64,000 bases of DNA, taken from Candidatus Hebobacterum abditum. GTDB taxonomy: Bacteria > Armatimonadota > Hebobacteria > Hebobacterales > Hebobacteraceae. Where the stretch lies: NCBI GenBank assembly GCA_029821875.1, contig JALGXW010000016.1:1-64000 (forward strand). The letters are read 5' to 3'. The translations under genes and the position numbers were made by a program. Each line of letters opens with the position of its first letter. Within the stretch, counting starts at the first letter, position 1. The notes below the pieces were generated by a model. The model had not been told where the DNA came from. It saw only the letters and a program-made list of their open reading frames with translations, and did not search any database. Positions 48,633 through 63,162 of the stretch are shown here, in pieces.

Positions 48633-50336
48633 CTAGCTCTCAGGGCCCGCGCTCGCCTGGATGTTCCCCCACACACGGGGTATCCGGTGGTTGGAGACCA
48701 GGACGAAGTCACCGCGGCGGGTCCACACGTGGAGCTCCGGGACTTCCTCGATCAGAGTGGGGACGAACTTCGCGTGTGTGAGGGCGGTGGCTGGGCTCGG
48801 CGAGGAGAGGAAGCGGGTCAGCTCTGCCACTTCCCACTCGCCGAGGTCCACGATCGGGCGGCGGGCGTAGAAGATGGTGGCATTGCGCTTGGCGTAGAAC
48901 ACGCCGAGTGGCTCATACTCGGGGAGCGCGGCGGCCGCGAACTGGGCGAGCTCCTTGCGCGGCTGGGCCTGGATCTGCGCCAGCCGCGGCTTGAACCAGC
49001 CGATGTGGGCCACGCCAGCGACGGCCATGGCCGCGACCAGCAGCGGGAACACCGCGCGCCGGCGCCCGGCCGCGGCGGCGACGGCCGTACCGATTGATCC
49101 GGCAGCGAGGGCCGCCAGCATGACTACCGGCGCGGCGCCGGGGGTCCAGGAGCCGTAGGATGCCGCGAGCCTATCCCTGACCCATGGCGGCATGGTCGCC
49201 GCGACGCCGGCCGCAAGGGCCCCCGCTGCCCCGATCACGGCGAGCAGGGAGAAGCCCGCGGCTGTGAGCGGCCTGCTGATAGCTCGTCTCTGGAGCCAGG
49301 CCACCGACCAGCCCGCGGTCATGATCGCCAGGGCGGGGAAGGCGGGCACGAGGTAGTGAGGAAGCTTCGCACCCGCGAAGGAGAAGGTCACGATCACTGT
49401 GAGTGCCCACCAGGCGGAGAACCTGAGAACGTGGTCGCGGGGCTGGCGGAAGGCATGTGCGAGTGCCGCAGGCAGGAGGGCCACCCACGGGTAGAACCCG
49501 ATCAGCAGGTTCTTCAGGTGTCCCCACCAGGGCTCATCACGGGCCAGCTCCCCTTGCAGGTGGCCGAAGTGCTCTCGCAGCAGGAACGTCTGGACGAATC
49601 CCGGCTCGCGCAGACTTTCGTAGACGTACCAGGGCGCGGCGACGGCGAGCATGAGAGCAATGCCCGGAAGCAGTCGGGCCTCCGCAAGTGTCGATCGCAG
49701 CCGCCCCGCGCCAAGCAGATAGGCGATGAGTCCAAGGATGACGAGTCCGGTGGCGACAGGGCCCTTGGCCAGCAGCGCAACGCCCAGCAGCGCGTAGGCC
49801 GGCAGATAGAGCACAGGCTTGCGGCTCGGGTGGGCGCGCATGGCAAGGAAGAACAGGAACATGGCGAGCGCCAGCGCGGCCGTCAGCGGCATGTCAATCA
49901 TGGCCTCTCGGCCCGTGTCGATCCACACATAGCAGAGCGCAAGCATGAGCCCGGCTAAGAGGCCGGCGGTCCGGCTCAGCGTACGAGCCGCGAACCAGTA
50001 GGTGACTAAAACGATAAGCGTCGCGAAAAAGGCGGACACCGACCGAGCGGCGAATTCGGTGATGCCGAACAGGCGGAAGGCGGCTGCGATGAGCCAGTAG
50101 ATGAGGATTGGCTTCAGCAGGAACGGCTTTCCGTTGAAGTACGGTGTGCCGAGGTCGCCGCGCGCGAGCATTTCGCGGGCGCCCTCTGCATAGTAGGCTT
50201 CATCGAAGTCGTCGAGCGGTGTCACACCGAGTCGCCAGAAGAAGAGCACAGCGCAGAGAGCTAGCAGGAGCAGCGGGTACCAGAGGTCCCGCCGATCACG
50301 CTCGCGAGGGCCGGCCGGTTTCGAAGTTGCGTTCAT
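48633..50336 (-). CDS. GT39-like membrane glycosyltransferase
   Basis: 567 residues from ATG 50336 (an upstream ATG 50348 is also possible). About 11 to 12 membrane helices. The first lumenal loop has GVTPLDDFDEAYYAEGAREML with the acidic DDFDE motif typical of ArnT/PMT-type GT-C enzymes, followed by YFNGKPFLLKPILIYWLIA and AKLPHYLVPAFPALA. These enzymes move a sugar from a polyprenyl phosphate to a lipid or protein outside the cytoplasm. It starts head to head with a GT2 fusion that could make the polyprenyl-sugar donor. Confidence 0.85.
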   Translation of the reverse strand: MNATSKPAGPRERDRRDLWYPLLLLALCAVLFFWRLGVTPLDDFDEAYYAEGAREMLARGDLGTPYFNGKPFLLKPILIYWLIAAAFRLFGITEFAARSVSAFFATLIVLVTYWFAARTLSRTAGLLAGLMLALCYVWIDTGREAMIDMPLTAALALAMFLFFLAMRAHPSRKPVLYLPAYALLGVALLAKGPVATGLVILGLIAYLLGAGRLRSTLAEARLLPGIALMLAVAAPWYVYESLREPGFVQTFLLREHFGHLQGELARDEPWWGHLKNLLIGFYPWVALLPAALAHAFRQPRDHVLRFSAWWALTVIVTFSFAGAKLPHYLVPAFPALAIMTAGWSVAWLQRRAISRPLTAAGFSLLAVIGAAGALAAGVAATMPPWVRDRLAASYGSWTPGAAPVVMLAALAAGSIGTAVAAAAGRRRAVFPLLVAAMAVAGVAHIGWFKPRLAQIQAQPRKELAQFAAAALPEYEPLGVFYAKRNATIFYARRPIVDLGEWEVAELTRFLSSPSPATALTHAKFVPTLIEEVPELHVWTRRGDFVLVSNHRIPRVWGNIQASAGPES

Positions 50337-50346
50337 GGCAGGCAAC

Positions 50347-51918
50347 ATGAGCCTCTCGTTCGTCTATCCAGTATACAACGAGATCGAGAATCTCCCGCAC
50401 TTGCTGCCCGAGACGCGGCGGATCGCTGAAGGCTTCACTTCCGATCTGGAAGTCGTGCTCGTCGACGACGGCAGCACCGATGGCAGCGGCGCCTTCATGG
50501 CCCGACTGGCCGACGAACATCCATGCATCGTGGCCGTCCATCACGCGCGCAACCGCGGGCTCGGCGCGGCGATCCGCACCGGACTATCCGCCGCGACGAA
50601 GGACCTAGTTCTCTACATGGACTCCGATTTCCCTGTAACTGTGGAGGAAGCCAGGGCCGCGCTCGCGAAGTTCTCCGATGAGGTCGATCTGCTGATCGGC
50701 TACCGGCTCGGCCGGGCCGAGGGGCCGCGCAGGGAGATCATGTCATGGACCTACAACCGGCTGATCCGGGTCGCCTTTGGGCTCAAGGTGAGGGATGTCA
50801 ACTTCGCCTTCAAGTTGATCCGCCGGTCTCTGCTCACCCAGATGCGGCTGCGGAGTGAGGGATCGTTCATCGATGCGGAGCTGCTGCTGGAGGCCGCTCG
50901 CCTCGGCGCGCGCGCGCGGGAGGTGGGCATTCACTACCATCCCCGGACCGCGGGGGTGTCGACGGCGGCCAGCACTCGCGTCGTGCTGCACATCTTCCGA
51001 GAGATGTGGCGCTACTGGCGAGGCCGCGGGGTTGGACGCTCGGGGCCGGCGCGCCTGATCGTCAACGCGGACGACTTCGGCCTGAGGAGAGAGATCGATC
51101 TCGGAGTGATCGAGGCCTTCGAGCGCGGCATCGTGACCAGCGCCAGCTTGATGGCGGCGGGTGCGAGCTTCGATCACGCGGTGGCGCTGGCCCGCTCGCG
51201 ACCGGCCTTGGACTTAGGCCTGCACCTCGTTCTGACCGAAGGCAGACCGGTGTCGGCCTGCCACCGGATTCCAGGCCTCGTGGACAGGCAGGGGCGGCTC
51301 CCGCCGACATGGGGGAGCTTCCTCAGGCGTTACGCAGCAGGCCGGGTCCGCGCGCCCGAGGTCGAGATCGAGCTGCGGGCCCAGATCGAGCGCGCACTCG
51401 CCACGGGCCTGCGGTTCTCCCACATCGACAGCCATCAGCACTTGCACATGCTCCCCCGCGTTCTGCCGGTGGTCATCGGGCTCGCAAGCGAGTACGGCAT
51501 CGCGGCCATCCGCTGCCCTCGGCAGTTGAGCTCCCCTGGCGCAGGCCGGGGCGCGGCCGGCGCGGTCGGACGTCGGGCCCAGCTGGGCGCCCTGCGCCTG
51601 CTCTGTCGTCTCGGCGAACGTTCGCTCCGGGGCAATGGTATCCTGACGGCCGATGAGTTCCGGGGTTTCACAGAAGCGGGACGCTGGCGCACCGATTCTC
51701 TGGTCAGCACAATAGAGGGGCTGGGGCCCGGCCTCACTGAGGTTGGCTGCCACCCCGGCGCGGACGATGCCGTGGACCGCGACCTCGGCTGGGGCTACCG
51801 CTGGGAGCAGGAGCTGGCTGCCCTGACGAGTCCTGAGGTGGCTGACGCCGTCACCCAGGGCGGCGTGGGCCTGACGACGTACCGCGACGCCCTGTCGCGG
51901 CAGGGGAAGTCGAGCTAA
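50347..51918 (+). CDS. GT2 glycosyltransferase fused to HpnK/YdjC deacetylase
   Basis: 523 residues from ATG 50347 (ATG 50335 also in frame). Residues about 1-220 are a GT-A fold of the dolichol-phosphate-mannose synthase type (SFVYPVYNEIENL, VVLVDDGSTDGS, DxD in LYMDSDF). From about 232 a YdjC/HpnK-like deacetylase begins: RLIVNADDFGLRREIDLGVIEAF, GLHLVLTEG and HIDSHQHLHMLPRVLPV, with Asp-Asp and His metal ligands. Together it could make and de-N-acetylate a lipid-linked sugar for the divergent GT39 enzyme. The fusion is clear because no stop or frameshift separates the halves. Confidence 0.88.
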   Translation: MSLSFVYPVYNEIENLPHLLPETRRIAEGFTSDLEVVLVDDGSTDGSGAFMARLADEHPCIVAVHHARNRGLGAAIRTGLSAATKDLVLYMDSDFPVTVEEARAALAKFSDEVDLLIGYRLGRAEGPRREIMSWTYNRLIRVAFGLKVRDVNFAFKLIRRSLLTQMRLRSEGSFIDAELLLEAARLGARAREVGIHYHPRTAGVSTAASTRVVLHIFREMWRYWRGRGVGRSGPARLIVNADDFGLRREIDLGVIEAFERGIVTSASLMAAGASFDHAVALARSRPALDLGLHLVLTEGRPVSACHRIPGLVDRQGRLPPTWGSFLRRYAAGRVRAPEVEIELRAQIERALATGLRFSHIDSHQHLHMLPRVLPVVIGLASEYGIAAIRCPRQLSSPGAGRGAAGAVGRRAQLGALRLLCRLGERSLRGNGILTADEFRGFTEAGRWRTDSLVSTIEGLGPGLTEVGCHPGADDAVDRDLGWGYRWEQELAALTSPEVADAVTQGGVGLTTYRDALSRQGKSS

Positions 51919-54825: not shown

Positions 54826-56730
54826 CTAGGTTGCTACCCCCGCCTCCGCGGCCTCCTCGACGCGCGGCCAGCCCCTGACACAGCGGCGGACGGCCGCGAC
54901 ACTGAGCAGCGCGAATGGCAGGAGTGCCAGCTCCAACCACCAGAGATTCACACTCTCCATCAATCCGCCGACGTGCACGTATCCGGTAATCGCATCGAGC
55001 CCGGTCAATATCAAGAACCCATACCAGAACAGCGACCGTCGGCCGCTGACAACCGCGAGCAGGACCAGCACCCGCGAGCCCGTGTGGCAGAGGATGGCGA
55101 TCGCCCGCTCGGCCGGCCCAATGAGCCACAGCGCCGAAGTTGCGCCCGTAGCGGCGAGATCTTCGCTCAGGGCCTCCATGCCCGGGGTGTTCAGCATCAG
55201 GGCGAGCGCCCCTGCGGACCCCCCGGCGCCCAGCAGTATCGCCTCGATTGCACCCGCGCCGACGCCCACTGCCACGGCCCGCGCCGCAGTCCGCGACAGC
55301 TTCCGCCAGATGAGCGCTGCAGCCAGCGTTACCCCGATCTCGAAGATGCCGGTCAACCCGCCGACGTAGAGTGACCCGGCGATGAGATATCCGAGGCGCG
55401 GCACGGAGTTCTCCAGAAACGCCAGCACGGATCCATGGGGACCCGCTGCCCAGGCTGCCTTCAGCGCTACGCCGGCAATCCAGATGGCCGCGCCGGCGAA
55501 GAACCATCGCATGGGCACGGCCCAGACGAGTCGGGTCACGACTACAAAGGCGAGTGCGAGAAGCACCATCAGTGTGCCCGACACCAGAAGGGAGCGGACC
55601 ACCCCCGGCGGGACAGTGGGCGGCGGCTTTGGCTTGCTCGGCTCAACATACTCTTGGAAGAAGGCCACTATTCTTGCTGCGAACGAATCGAGCGTCGGAT
55701 ACTCGTCGCGGCTCGCCTCGTATTCCTCGAACAGCTCCGAGAGCGGCTCGATCCACAGGAACCCCCTGTCGCGATCCTGGCGCGTCTGCTGTCTGGCTGC
55801 GGCTTCGCCCTCGTGTGTGGCAAGATAGCGGATGACGCTCGCCCGCACCAGGGATTCGCGCATCATCGTCTCCCAGGCTCCGTAGGCGTTGCGCCGCATC
55901 TGCATCTCGACCCGAGCGAAGAGCTTCTTAGCAGGTCCCTCGAGTTCGGCGGCGTGCCGGTCGGCGACCGGGTTGGCATAGGAATGGCAGAACTCGTGGA
56001 TGATCGTTGGAATGACGGCTCTGCTGAAGGCCGGAGAGCCATCTTCACGCTGTCCCGGCACGCCAAGGATGCAGTAGATCTCGGTGACAGCATGGCCGGG
56101 GAACCTAGGGCCGTAGTTGTGGGCCCCGTTCAGCAGGCTCGGCACGAGGCGGAACTCGTCTCGCTTCCCCTCTCCGAAGAAGCTCTCGAACCAGCCGAGG
56201 TCAACTGCGTCGGCCAACACCGACTCCAGTTCCCGGGCCGCGCCCCGATGCACCGGCTCGTGAGCATCGAAGAACCCCCAGAAGTCGCTCTCGTCCACGA
56301 AGCTGCGCAGCTTCTCGAGGAAATCCGTCACGTCCTCCGGCTGCCAGCGCTGGTCGAGGGTGGCCGGCCAGGGCTCCAGCGGAACGCGCAGTTGAAGGCT
56401 GCGGTCGTCCGTGAGATGCACGGCCAGGCTCATCGGCGCGTCGAACGATACGCCATGCTCCGCTCGCAGGCGTCGGGCCGTGGTGACGGCCGGGTGGCCC
56501 TGGACCGACTCGAAGTGCTGCTGGACTTCGCTCTCGTAGCTCGGCACGCGGCACATGTTGTACTCGGGGTTGCCGGCAAGGTGGAAGATGGTGCTGATGA
56601 GTTCGATTCGCGGATCGACGCGGATGGACAGCGACGGACGCTGGCCTTCCTGCTCGGCAGCCCGAGTGTGGGACGCCAGACACGCGAGCAACGCCGCAAC
56701 GCAGCACGCAGCTATCCGAAGACGTGGCAT
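54826..56730 (-). CDS. DUF4932-like metallopeptidase fused to a YhfC-like intramembrane protease
   Basis: 634 residues. Signal peptide at 1-24 (ACCVAALLACLASHTRA). The outer domain (about 30-365) resembles DUF4932: IELISTIFHLAGNPEYNMCRVPSYESEVQQHF in parts, and the zinc motif HEFCH at 245-249. A proline-rich linker (SKPKPPPTVPPG) leads to about eight membrane helices at 378-615. These resemble YhfC-type glutamic intramembrane proteases: GAGAIEAILLG with Glu496 and ERAIAILCHTGSRVLVLL with Glu541 and His549. The usual third-motif His is not seen; LTGLDAITGY (Asp579) stands there. One uninterrupted frame. The domain calls are by motif and are less sure for the membrane part. Confidence 0.6.
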   Translation of the reverse strand: MPRLRIAACCVAALLACLASHTRAAEQEGQRPSLSIRVDPRIELISTIFHLAGNPEYNMCRVPSYESEVQQHFESVQGHPAVTTARRLRAEHGVSFDAPMSLAVHLTDDRSLQLRVPLEPWPATLDQRWQPEDVTDFLEKLRSFVDESDFWGFFDAHEPVHRGAARELESVLADAVDLGWFESFFGEGKRDEFRLVPSLLNGAHNYGPRFPGHAVTEIYCILGVPGQREDGSPAFSRAVIPTIIHEFCHSYANPVADRHAAELEGPAKKLFARVEMQMRRNAYGAWETMMRESLVRASVIRYLATHEGEAAARQQTRQDRDRGFLWIEPLSELFEEYEASRDEYPTLDSFAARIVAFFQEYVEPSKPKPPPTVPPGVVRSLLVSGTLMVLLALAFVVVTRLVWAVPMRWFFAGAAIWIAGVALKAAWAAGPHGSVLAFLENSVPRLGYLIAGSLYVGGLTGIFEIGVTLAAALIWRKLSRTAARAVAVGVGAGAIEAILLGAGGSAGALALMLNTPGMEALSEDLAATGATSALWLIGPAERAIAILCHTGSRVLVLLAVVSGRRSLFWYGFLILTGLDAITGYVHVGGLMESVNLWWLELALLPFALLSVAAVRRCVRGWPRVEEAAEAGVAT

Positions 56731-59023: not shown

Positions 59024-60265
59024 TCATCTCACCTCGTACCGCAGCAGGCCCTCGTGTCTCTTGCTGCTGGGAAAACGGGCGAACACTCCAGCCTGACCTC
59101 TCTCAACAACGACCTCGCCGGAGAAGACTCCGTCGCCTGCCGGTGCCAGATGTCTCGCGAGCCCGTTCACGCCCACGATCACGTCCTCCGCGCCCGGGGC
59201 ACGCACTCGGAAGTGGACCCGCGCATCCGCCTTCAGGATCCCGGAGATGGGCGAGGCGAGATGGCACCCTCGCTCCTGAAACGACAGATACATCTTCGGG
59301 AACACCTCGTGGGCCGAGCCTTTGGCGTGAATGGCGTACTCGAGTGCCGAATCGTACTCCTGTGCGGCGGCGTTTCGCTCGCGAGCGAAGACGCGCAGCA
59401 CGTAGTCGCCCGGAGCGGGGAAGACTGCACGAATCACGAACCCGCGTGCTTCCCTCTGGGTGAAGGTGTGGTTTTCGTCTAGGGTCCATCCGTTCTGCAA
59501 CAGAGACGCCACAACTAACGTCTCCTCCGACGCCCCAATGGTGATGGTCAGGGAGTCGTCCACTTCGATGTTGCCCCTCTCATGGCTGACCAGGCGCAGA
59601 CCGTGCTCGAAGAAGGCTGACTGGACCCAAGCGCGCGCCAGGAACTCCGCTTTCGTGACCGGCCTCTGGAGCAGCTGCCATCTGTCCTCCGATGGGAGAT
59701 GGTCGTAGATGAAGAGCTCGGGCGGCGTAAGGAAGTAGTGGTCGGTGAATCGCTTCTCGAACTGCATTCGCTCATTCAGCCTGCCCGCGCCCCACGTGCA
59801 GTCGAGAAGCGCCCATCTCCCGTCGATCTTCACCGCGTTCCAGTCGTGTGTCAGCAGGCCGTCAGCGCTGATTGCCGCTTGGGGGCCCATGCCCTTGGCA
59901 TGTCCGTGGATGACCTCGGCATCCAGACCTGCCGCGTCCGCCAGTGCCTTGAAGAGCGCCGCGTATCCGGCGCAGACTGCTCTTCTCTCTGCTAGCACCG
60001 ACCTGGGGTCAGGAGGCCGCCCGAATCGCGACACATCGTAGTTGATGTTGAGGGCCATCCAGGTAAACAACGCCCGCGCCTTCTCACGGTCACTTCGGGC
60101 CGGCCCCGTGAGGTAGGTGGCGAGCGACGTGATCGAAGTGCAAGCGGCCGACGGGGCAGCTCGGGCATGCGCGTCGATGGCGGCGAACTCGGCCTCTGCG
60201 CCGACGGCCAAGGGCGCAGATCCCACGAACAACGCCATCAGGACCAGGGATACCATCCTCACCAT
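59024..60265 (-). CDS. Secreted transglutaminase-like protein (kyphoscoliosis-peptidase type)
   Basis: 413 residues from ATG 60265 (GGGAG eight bases upstream). Signal peptide VSLVLMALFVGSAPLAVGAEAEF. The transglutaminase core shows the triad: Cys in ERRAVCAGYAALFKALADAAG, His in LLTHDWNAVKIDGRWALLDCTWGAG, and the Asp of that second block. Beta-rich C-terminal domains follow. Bacterial members can be proteases or cross-linkers of the envelope. The frame continues upstream to 60409 without a signal sequence, which I reject. Confidence 0.85.
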   Translation of the reverse strand: MVRMVSLVLMALFVGSAPLAVGAEAEFAAIDAHARAAPSAACTSITSLATYLTGPARSDREKARALFTWMALNINYDVSRFGRPPDPRSVLAERRAVCAGYAALFKALADAAGLDAEVIHGHAKGMGPQAAISADGLLTHDWNAVKIDGRWALLDCTWGAGRLNERMQFEKRFTDHYFLTPPELFIYDHLPSEDRWQLLQRPVTKAEFLARAWVQSAFFEHGLRLVSHERGNIEVDDSLTITIGASEETLVVASLLQNGWTLDENHTFTQREARGFVIRAVFPAPGDYVLRVFARERNAAAQEYDSALEYAIHAKGSAHEVFPKMYLSFQERGCHLASPISGILKADARVHFRVRAPGAEDVIVGVNGLARHLAPAGDGVFSGEVVVERGQAGVFARFPSSKRHEGLLRYEVR

Positions 60266-60440
60266 TCGCTTGTCTCCCGGGATATCATTTCCACATGCGC
60301 GGTGCTCACAAGCCATTTCGATCTCCATCTCTGGCCGATCGTAGCCCCAGGTTGACCATGCTCTGGCCCCGGTCTCGTAGGAGATGCCGCGCCTCTGTGG
60401 TAGGCCCATTCAGGAGCGTGTGGCCTCCTGGGGGTAGTGA

Positions 60441-61671: not shown

Positions 61672-63162
61672 TCACCACAGATGCAGCAGCGCGTCGACCG
61701 GGGCGTAGTCGTCAGTGAGGACAGGGACATCGCCAGTGGCCACGGGCTGGGACACATGGTCATCTAGGCGCTGCGGAAGCTTGTCGTCCTTGATGAGCTT
61801 CCCCTGAAGCTGTGCAGCCCGCTGTCGCAGGTCGCTAAGTGGGAAGCTCTGACTCGCGTTGACCGCGAAGACCTCGATGTTGATCCAAGTCCCGCCGCTG
61901 GCTCTCACCTTGAAGGCGGAGACCCGAGGGAACACCTCTGCCATCGTCTTGTACACCGACCGGAAGAACTTGCTCCTCGGTCCGGTCACCTGGCCGACGA
62001 CGTTGTTCACAAGGACTCCACCGGGGCTGAGCCGGCTCTTGGCGATGGTGAAGAACTCCCGAGTTGTCAGGAAGAAGGGCACGGTGTCTGAGTAGTAGGC
62101 GTCGAGTAATATCATGTCCCACTTCTGCTCGGCGCGCCGCAGGAACTGGCGGCCGTCGGCCTCGTGTATACTGAGTCGAGGCCCGGTCTTCACATCGAAG
62201 TACTGGCGCGCGATCCTGATGACAGCCGGATCGATCTCCACTGCGTCGACTGTCACCTGCGGGTAGTCCCGAACGAATCGCTTAGGCACCGTTCCGCCAC
62301 CCAGTCCGATGACCAGAACCCGGCGGATGTTCGGGTTGAAGAGGAACGCCAGGTCCACGTAGTCGGAGTAGGGGAGGCCGCGGCCGTGCGGGTCCCGCAG
62401 GTCCATCTGCGTGTGCCAGATGTTGTCTGCGCGCAGCCAGCGATAGTGGTCATCCTCCGTTACAAACAGGCGGTGATAGGAGCTGTCGCGTTCGAGCAGT
62501 ATCTGCTCTTTGGCGTGGCTCGGCTGAGGGACCAGCAGGAGCAGGAAAGCGATAGCAGCGGCGGAGCCGACGCGTCGGCGTTGTGTCAGGGAGAGACAGA
62601 GGAGCGCGGTCACGACAAGGCCGGCTCCGAGCAGGTAGAGTATCTTCTTTGTTCCCAAGGCGGGGATCAGGTAGAAGGCGGTCCCCAATGTGCCCGCGAT
62701 GCTCCCGATGGTCGAGACGGCGTAGACGGCCCCGGCTGTCCGGCCCACTTCGCCTATGCTGTGTGCCGTCAGGCGGATGACGAAGGGAGAGGTGACTGCC
62801 ATCAGCGCCCCAGGCAGGAAGAACAGGATCATGCATGTGATCAGGGAGCCGGCGCGCACGTCCGTATACCGCACCGAGACAGCGTCGGCGACGGCCGAGC
62901 CGTAGCGCGGCAGCAGGAACACGAGCGCGGCCGACAACAGGAGTGTGGTGCCCAGAACGCCGGCGCTCGGCCAGCGGTCGACGAGCCTGCCCCCGAGGTA
63001 GTAGCCGATGCTGAGCGCGGCCAGGAACACTCCTATGAGGCTCCCCCACACGAATATGGATCCCCCGAAGGAGGGCGCCAGCACGCGGAAGCCAACGAGT
63101 TCGAGCGCCATGAGAATGGCGCCCGCCAGAAACGCCACTAGAAGCAGAAGCCCTCTGCGCAT
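61672..63162 (-). CDS. MFS-like membrane domain fused to spermidine-synthase-like domain
   Basis: 496 residues, ATG 63162 with AAGGG upstream. Six or seven membrane helices occupy residues 1-210 (LLLLVAFLAGAILMALELVGF, SLIGVFLAALSIGYYLGGRL), then a Rossmann domain of the spermidine synthase fold (RRVLVIGLGGGTVPKRFVRDYPQVTVDAVEIDP, WDMILLDAYYSDTVPFFLTT). The active-site Asp region ILLDAY is present. Fused proteins of this kind are common and their substrate is often unknown, so polyamine synthesis should not be assumed. Confidence 0.88.
   Translation of the reverse strand: MRRGLLLLVAFLAGAILMALELVGFRVLAPSFGGSIFVWGSLIGVFLAALSIGYYLGGRLVDRWPSAGVLGTTLLLSAALVFLLPRYGSAVADAVSVRYTDVRAGSLITCMILFFLPGALMAVTSPFVIRLTAHSIGEVGRTAGAVYAVSTIGSIAGTLGTAFYLIPALGTKKILYLLGAGLVVTALLCLSLTQRRRVGSAAAIAFLLLLVPQPSHAKEQILLERDSSYHRLFVTEDDHYRWLRADNIWHTQMDLRDPHGRGLPYSDYVDLAFLFNPNIRRVLVIGLGGGTVPKRFVRDYPQVTVDAVEIDPAVIRIARQYFDVKTGPRLSIHEADGRQFLRRAEQKWDMILLDAYYSDTVPFFLTTREFFTIAKSRLSPGGVLVNNVVGQVTGPRSKFFRSVYKTMAEVFPRVSAFKVRASGGTWINIEVFAVNASQSFPLSDLRQRAAQLQGKLIKDDKLPQRLDDHVSQPVATGDVPVLTDDYAPVDALLHLW

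What the first reader, a model, noticed from the sequence alone, without database searches (positions are those of the whole stretch)
54826..56730. Two-protease fusion: DUF4932-like metallopeptidase plus YhfC-like intramembrane protease
Seen: one frame encodes a signal peptide, a domain with HEFCH at 245-249, a proline-rich linker, and about eight membrane helices carrying GAGAIEAILLG (Glu496) and ERAIAILCHTG (Glu541, His549). Known: DUF4932 proteins carry an HExxH-type site, and YhfC proteins are glutamic-type intramembrane proteases related to Rce1/CPBP. Inference: an exported metalloprotease and a membrane protease joined in one chain could cut a substrate first outside and then inside the membrane, a one-protein form of regulated proteolysis. 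The pairing is not one I know. The divergent DMT transporter and the GT-C-like gene downstream give no clue to the target.
Basis: partly seen in the sequence, partly recalled or inferred. Interest (0 to 1): 0.68.

Follow-up and report, generated by a model that had tools for sequence, protein, structure and literature searches.

The report
Zinc peptidase fused to YhfC membrane domain
One bacterial gene joins an exported zinc-peptidase-like domain to a seven-helix membrane domain of the YhfC family; the join is real and so far found in only one Armatimonadota genus, but the membrane half lacks parts of the usual protease signature, so whether it also cuts is open.

Summary
An uninterrupted 634-codon frame on the minus strand (54826-56730) encodes a signal peptide, a DUF4932 domain (E 2e-56) and a YhfC-type membrane domain (E 4.5e-5, just under Pfam's cut-off; relatives score far above it). 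A second species of the genus has the same junction in one contig, and both halves are under purifying selection. Among about 1,280 genomes of four phyla no other DUF4932-YhfC fusion was seen; in a related family the halves are separate genes. In at least three other lineages the same membrane domain carries other exported beta-type domains, so the ectodomain is a swapped module. The DUF4932 site is intact (H245, E246, H249, plus invariant E292). The membrane half folds with high confidence into seven helices, N-terminus outside, with E464, E496, H549 and D579 near one depth. It belongs to a well-supported clade that lost the second Glu and Arg of EExxR, the GHG His and the His of HxxxN. It may be a modified intramembrane protease or a non-cutting APH-1/TMEM147-like scaffold. 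I favour a membrane-tethered zinc peptidase whose YhfC half holds the membrane part of the substrate; two-step cutting is possible but unproven.

The parts
54826..56730 (-). Whole fusion gene, 634 aa (P0001), including stop codon
   Evidence: Open frame; single copy in the genome
56659..56730 (-). Sec-type signal peptide, residues 1-24 (cleavage near TRA/A)
   Evidence: Read from the sequence: RLR basic start, hydrophobic core, A-rich end; no signal predictor was run
55660..56628 (-). DUF4932 domain, about residues 35-357; HEFCH at 245-249, N253, Y283, E292, R296
   Evidence: PF16286 E 2.2e-56 and 4e-57; H245, E246, H249, N253, Y283, E292, R296 invariant in 28 aligned DUF4932 domains
55984..55998 (-). 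HExxH site HEFCH (residues 245-249)
   Evidence: identical in sister species
55855..55857 (-). E292, candidate third metal ligand (E of the ESLVRA stretch)
   Evidence: Invariant in the 28-row alignment; ligand role inferred
55591..55656 (-). Proline-rich linker, residues 359-380 (QEYVEPSKPKPPPTVPPGVVRS)
   Evidence: conserved in position in the sister species, in one contig with both flanks
54829..55605 (-). YhfC-type membrane domain, residues 376-634; TM at 377-403, 407-429, 445-474, 482-512, 534-562, 565-587, 596-619
   Evidence: PF10086 (relatives 41.7-83 bits); AlphaFold2 model pLDDT 92.2, pTM 0.88; tree
55339..55341 (-). E464 (TM3, LTGIFEIG), counterpart of the first Glu of canonical EExxR
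   Evidence: Invariant in 26 YhfC sequences
55243..55245 (-). E496 (TM4, GAGAIEA)
   Evidence: Invariant in 26 YhfC sequences
55084..55110 (-). E541, R542 ... H549 (TM5, ERAIAILCH)
   Evidence: E541 and R542 invariant, H549 in 90% or more of 26 rows
54994..54996 (-). D579 (TM6), counterpart of the last residue of HxxxN/D; the His position is Leu575
   Evidence: Invariant in the 20-row subfamily alignment; columns

Best explanation
The gene makes a membrane-tethered, outward-facing zinc peptidase. Shown: the fusion is real, the DUF4932 ectodomain keeps an intact HExxH...E site, and the C-terminal half is a seven-helix YhfC-family domain with conserved charged residues inside the membrane. Inferred: the protein is exported by its signal peptide, the DUF4932 domain sits outside the cytoplasmic membrane, and it clips membrane-bound or membrane-proximal envelope proteins. 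The YhfC half anchors the enzyme and holds the transmembrane part of the substrate in the polar cluster E464/E496/H549/D579. Because its clade has lost parts of the usual catalytic motifs, I think it more likely that this half captures and presents the substrate (as APH-1 or TMEM147 do for partners of peptidase-like ectodomain proteins) than that it makes a standard second cut, but a second cut is not excluded.
For: Domain hits. Metal-site residues invariant across 28 DUF4932 domains and kept in the sister species. Same junction in a second species with dN/dS 0.24 (ectodomain) and 0.35 (membrane half), so both halves are maintained. Model pLDDT 92.2, seven helices. Cytoplasmic loops and tail carry 2, 4, 2 and 4 K/R against 1, 1, 0 and 0 on the outer side, giving N-out, C-in. 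E464, E496, H549 and D579 lie 10-14 residues from the cytoplasmic helix ends, on four adjacent helices. The clade lacks EExxR, GHGG His and HxxxN His, with 100/100 support for its separation from canonical YhfC. Best fold matches among the 50 listed: a 224-residue chain of the multipass translocon (TM 0.58/0.65, prob 0.99) and a 221-residue chain of the TMCO1 translocon (TM 0.49/0.56, prob 0.91). TMEM147 in that complex has seven TMDs and was modelled on APH-1, with Nicalin modelled on Nicastrin (PMC7505659). Other lineages carry different exported domains on the same membrane half.
Against: No activity is known for any DUF4932 protein in the papers searched; one paper calls a member only a putative metalloprotease (PMC5410138). 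Six charged residues kept in the membrane across a clade of about 25-30% identity look more like catalysis than scaffolding. Foldseek E-values are not significant (best 0.39; 0.53 for the translocon chain). No coordinates could be inspected, so contact between the polar residues is inferred from sequence depth. The ectodomain was not modelled reliably (pLDDT about 40).
Confidence: 0.42

Rival explanations
1. One-protein regulated proteolysis: the zinc ectodomain sheds the outer part of a membrane protein, then the YhfC half cuts the remaining stub inside the membrane, perhaps freeing a cytoplasmic regulator such as an ECF sigma factor.
For: Conserved intramembrane Glu/His/Asp set. Two of three relatives with other ectodomains lie next to ECF sigma genes: L048 has two ECF sigma genes, each followed by a membrane-protein gene, then the beta-domain-YhfC gene; L045 has an ECF sigma gene and a Ser/Thr kinase gene just upstream. 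PrsW, a distant relative, is known to act in such a pathway (general knowledge).
Against: EExxR and HxxxN are incomplete in this clade. No sigma gene was found in the window by the three queries used. ECF sigma genes are common in these phyla, so two of three is weak.
Confidence: 0.3
2. The membrane half is only an anchor: DUF4932, usually a free exported protein, became tethered to the membrane by chance fusion to a YhfC gene whose own activity is lost or irrelevant.
For: DUF4932 elsewhere is typically a signal peptide plus domain plus a C-terminal Ig-like tail without membrane domain; the fusion is confined to one genus.
Against: All superfamily-invariant membrane residues are kept in both species and the half is under purifying selection; a single helix would suffice as an anchor.
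Confidence: 0.15
3. The DUF4932 domain is a non-catalytic gatekeeper or receptor (as Nicastrin is) and the YhfC half is the enzyme or chaperone.
For: In relatives the same position is held by apparently non-enzymatic beta-type domains; APH-1/Nicastrin and TMEM147/Nicalin parallel.
Against: HExxH, N253, E292 and R296 are fully kept, unlike a dead peptidase.
Confidence: 0.1

Closest known systems
DUF4932 (PF16286) exported proteins, here mainly of Planctomycetota, Armatimonadota, Acidobacteriota
   Same: Signal peptide, full 332-position domain, HExxH...E pattern
   Different: Others typically end after the domain or go on into an Ig-like tail or, in L003, a beta-propeller plus CBM9 domain; this one goes on into a seven-helix membrane domain
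YhfC family (PF10086, formerly DUF2324), canonical members such as L018/L019
   Same: Same Pfam family, same order of conserved E, GxGxGxxE, ER...H and N/D positions
   Different: Belongs to a separate clade without the second Glu and Arg of EExxR, the GHGG His and the HxxxN/D His; carries an exported enzyme-like domain
Ectodomain-YhfC fusions L045 (Planctomycetia), L047 (Anaerolineae), L048 (Armatimonadota)
   Same: Signal peptide, exported domain, then a YhfC half of the same clade
   Different: Their ectodomains are short and look beta-type with no confident Pfam match, not DUF4932
CPBP glutamic intramembrane proteases (Rce1, myxosortase MrtX) and PrsW
   Same: YhfC/DUF2324 is described as PrsW-like (PMC3482391); Glu/His in transmembrane helices
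   Different: MrtX and Rce1 use EExxxR and HxxxN (PMC11980579); neither motif is complete here
TMEM147-Nicalin and APH-1-Nicastrin
   Same: Seven-helix membrane protein paired with a large extracytoplasmic peptidase-like domain; fold match to a translocon chain I take to be TMEM147
   Different: Separate chains there; Nicalin and Nicastrin are of another peptidase fold (general knowledge); homology not shown
PrsW-DUF2324 fusion in archaea (Pyrococcus horikoshii PH0065)
   Same: A YhfC-type domain joined to another peptidase domain (PMC3482391)
   Different: Both parts are membrane peptidases; no exported zinc peptidase

Membership tests
DUF4932 (PF16286) | Score above Pfam's gathering cut-off over the whole profile | tested here: met
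   192.1 bits against 28.7, profile 2-332 of 332
DUF4932 (PF16286) | HExxH and other invariant residues of the family | tested here: met
   H245, E246, H249, N253, Y283, E292, R296 all kept
DUF4932 (PF16286) | Zinc binding and peptidase activity | not testable with these tools
   Needs purified protein; no solved relative found by sequence
YhfC (PF10086) | Score above Pfam's gathering cut-off | tested here: inconclusive
   Window protein 23.5 bits against 24.2; sister 27.6; clade relatives 41.7-83 bits
YhfC (PF10086) | Residues invariant across canonical and non-canonical members (E464, GxGxG, E496, E541, R542) | tested here: met
   26-row alignment
CPBP-type glutamic intramembrane protease | EExxxR-type motif (EExxR in YhfC) | tested here: not met
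   E464-I-G-V-T against FEEVAR in L018
CPBP-type glutamic intramembrane protease | HxxxN/D motif in a later core helix | tested here: not met
   L575...D579 against HAGIN in L018
CPBP-type glutamic intramembrane protease | Fold match to Rce1 (4CAD) | tested here: inconclusive
   Not among the 50 best PDB hits; 204 further hits were not shown
Two-step regulated intramembrane proteolysis (site-1/site-2) system | Two sequential cuts of one membrane substrate | not testable with these tools
   No substrate identified; neighbours give no candidate
APH-1/TMEM147-like scaffold | Same fold and topology | tested here: inconclusive
   TM 0.58/0.65, probability 0.99, but E 0.53; seven helices N-out by charge distribution

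The most novel reading that the evidence does not exclude
A single-chain bacterial counterpart of the peptidase-like-ectodomain plus APH-1-fold pair: a zinc peptidase outside and a YhfC-fold domain with a reduced, possibly novel intramembrane active site (Glu-Glu-His-Asp instead of EExxxR/HxxxN) act on one membrane substrate, within a wider clade in which the exported module is swapped between lineages.
Probability: 0.25. Interest if true: 0.75.

Novelty: new variant of a known kind. Interest (0 to 1): 0.5.

Why it matters
YhfC proteins are annotated as intramembrane proteases largely by distant resemblance, and DUF4932 has no assigned function. A natural fusion links the two and gives each a testable context. 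The swapped ectodomains suggest that the YhfC half of this clade works on extracytoplasmic membrane substrates, and the clade without EExxR/HxxxN poses a clean question: is it a protease with a different active site, or a scaffold like APH-1?

Tried and rejected
Assembly chimera: rejected, because the sister species has the junction in one contig. Chance frame: rejected (domain scores, selection). DUF4932-YhfC fusion elsewhere: none in about 1,280 genomes of Armatimonadota, Planctomycetota, Chloroflexota and Acidobacteriota, none in plasmids. L079, L083, L085 and L088, whose alignments ran past residue 363, turned out to have Ig-like tails, not membrane helices. Solved-structure search by sequence: nothing relevant for either half. 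Single-sequence model of the whole chain: useless. Viral contigs for DUF4932 rows: none. Viral fold library: nothing. NCBIfam: nothing relevant. Obligate co-occurrence of the halves: not seen; G264 and G056 have YhfC without a DUF4932 hit.

Full report
What is there. The minus-strand frame 54826-56730 encodes 634 residues without a stop. It begins with a Sec-type signal peptide (residues 1-24, read by eye). Pfam finds DUF4932 (PF16286) at 35-357 with 192 bits and YhfC (PF10086) at 453-590 with 23.5 bits, 0.7 bits below the curated cut-off. The gene is single-copy in the genome.

Is the fusion real? Yes. The other species of the genus held in the collection (G001; its contig is labelled Candidatus Hebobacteria, Armatimonadota) has the DUF4932 C-terminus, the proline-rich linker and the first membrane helix in one contig (aa 146-413). 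The end of that contig overlaps by 114 exact bases the contig that carries the rest of the membrane half. By Nei-Gojobori counting, dN/dS is 0.24 for the ectodomain and 0.35 for the membrane half, so both halves are maintained. G001 lacks about 91 bases inside the DUF4932 part, which shifts the frame there; whether that is decay or an assembly error cannot be told.

How rare is it? Searching the whole protein in 291 Armatimonadota, 392 Planctomycetota, 301 Chloroflexota and 297 Acidobacteriota genomes gave more than 30 genomes with DUF4932 proteins and a number of YhfC proteins, but the fusion only in the window's genus. The DUF4932 proteins whose tails were examined end after the domain or continue into soluble, mostly Ig-like tails. 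In G008, of the same order, the DUF4932 pieces and the YhfC half lie on different contigs as separate genes, and one DUF4932 protein carries a beta-propeller and a CBM9 domain instead. The fusion is thus a recent, lineage-specific event.

The membrane half. A scan of 84,980 species genomes found 19 loci of its subfamily in Armatimonadota, Planctomycetota, Chloroflexota, Acidobacteriota, Bacillota, a Nealsonbacteria MAG and archaea. The ten relatives of this clade scanned with Pfam scored 41.7 to 83 bits against YhfC, so family membership is sound although the window protein alone misses the cut-off. Three of them (L045, L047, L048) have a signal or lipoprotein leader and a short, apparently beta-type exported domain in front of the YhfC half. 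The exported module is therefore swapped, and the window's version uses an enzyme-like one.

Active-site residues. Across 26 YhfC sequences, E464, G489, G491, G493, E496, E541 and R542 are invariant and H549 is in at least 90%. In the 20-row subfamily D579 is invariant too. Canonical YhfC (L018, L019) reads FFEEVAR, GHGGFE, ERIATLPVH and HAGIN at these places; the window reads IFEIGVT, GAGAIEA, ERAIAILCH and LTGLD. The second Glu and the Arg of EExxR, the GHGG His and the HxxxN His are missing. A maximum-likelihood tree separates the two kinds with 100/100 support. CPBP proteases such as Rce1 and myxosortase depend on EExxxR and HxxxN (PMC11980579). So the protein should not be filed as a standard glutamic intramembrane protease.

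Structure and topology. The membrane half, modelled with 20 relatives, has mean pLDDT 92.2 and pTM 0.88 and seven long helices. Basic residues crowd the loops expected inside (2, 4, 2, 4) and avoid those outside (1, 1, 0, 0), which puts the DUF4932 domain outside. E464, E496, H549 and D579 sit 10-14 residues from the cytoplasmic ends of four adjacent helices, so at similar depth; E541 and R542 lie nearer the outer face. Among the 50 best PDB matches only one exceeds TM 0.5 by both lengths: a 224-residue chain of the multipass translocon (7tm3, probability 0.99), with a 221-residue chain of the TMCO1 translocon (6w6l, TM 0.49/0.56, probability 0.91) next; E-values are not significant. I take both to be TMEM147 from chain length and complex (my inference). 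TMEM147 has seven TMDs and was modelled on APH-1, and its partner Nicalin on Nicastrin (PMC7505659). ECOD places APH-1 with Rce1 by homology (PMC6588880).

The ectodomain. H245, E246, H249, N253, Y283, E292 and R296 are invariant in 28 DUF4932 domains. HExxH plus a downstream invariant Glu is the pattern of gluzincin zinc peptidases (general knowledge). No solved relative was found and no reliable model could be made, so activity is inferred.

Mechanism. Shown: fusion, maintenance, motif state, predicted seven-helix fold. Inferred: export, zinc-dependent cleavage outside, substrate binding in the membrane. My leading reading is a tethered zinc peptidase whose YhfC half captures the membrane part of the substrate; the two-cut idea stays a serious rival. 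In favour of the rival, two of the three relatives with other ectodomains lie beside ECF sigma genes: L048 has two sigma genes, each followed by a membrane-protein gene, one of them DUF6768, just upstream; L045 has a sigma gene and a Ser/Thr kinase. The window itself has no sigma gene detectable by these queries, and such genes are common in these phyla.

Verdict. A real, rare domain fusion of two known families, with an unexpected twist in the membrane half. New variant of a known kind, moderate interest.

Noticed in passing
window 50335-51915 +: One frame joins a family-2 glycosyltransferase (residues 8-167) to a YdjC-like deacetylase domain (240-506); an unusual-looking pairing.
   Followed up: no
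window 61675-63162 -: Membrane (MFS-like) N-terminal part joined to a spermine/spermidine-synthase-like domain.
   Followed up: no
window 59027-60409 -: Transglutaminase-core protein with a KY-type Ig-like domain.
   Followed up: no
L048:3174-6723: Two ECF sigma genes, each followed by a small membrane-protein gene (one DUF6768), then a beta-domain-YhfC fusion; looks like a sigma/membrane-protein cassette with a YhfC partner.
   Followed up: partly
L045:1235-6699: ECF sigma gene, then what look like small toxin-antitoxin genes (by eye), then a Ser/Thr kinase and a beta-domain-YhfC fusion in Planctomycetia.
   Followed up: partly
L047:3880-5259 +: A serpin (protease inhibitor) gene lies about 0.9 kb downstream of a lipoprotein-type YhfC fusion in an Anaerolineae genome.
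   Followed up: no
L003:1-2145: DUF4932 joined to WD40-like (PD40) repeats and a CBM9 domain in a related family.
   Followed up: partly
L008 (G001 contig C331): About 91 bases missing inside the DUF4932 part of the sister gene, shifting the frame.
   Followed up: partly
YhfC alignment A3 and tree: PF10086 splits with full support into a canonical EExxR/GHGG/HxxxN-D clade and a clade with single Glu, no GHG His and mostly KxxxD; the second also occurs in archaea.
   Followed up: yes
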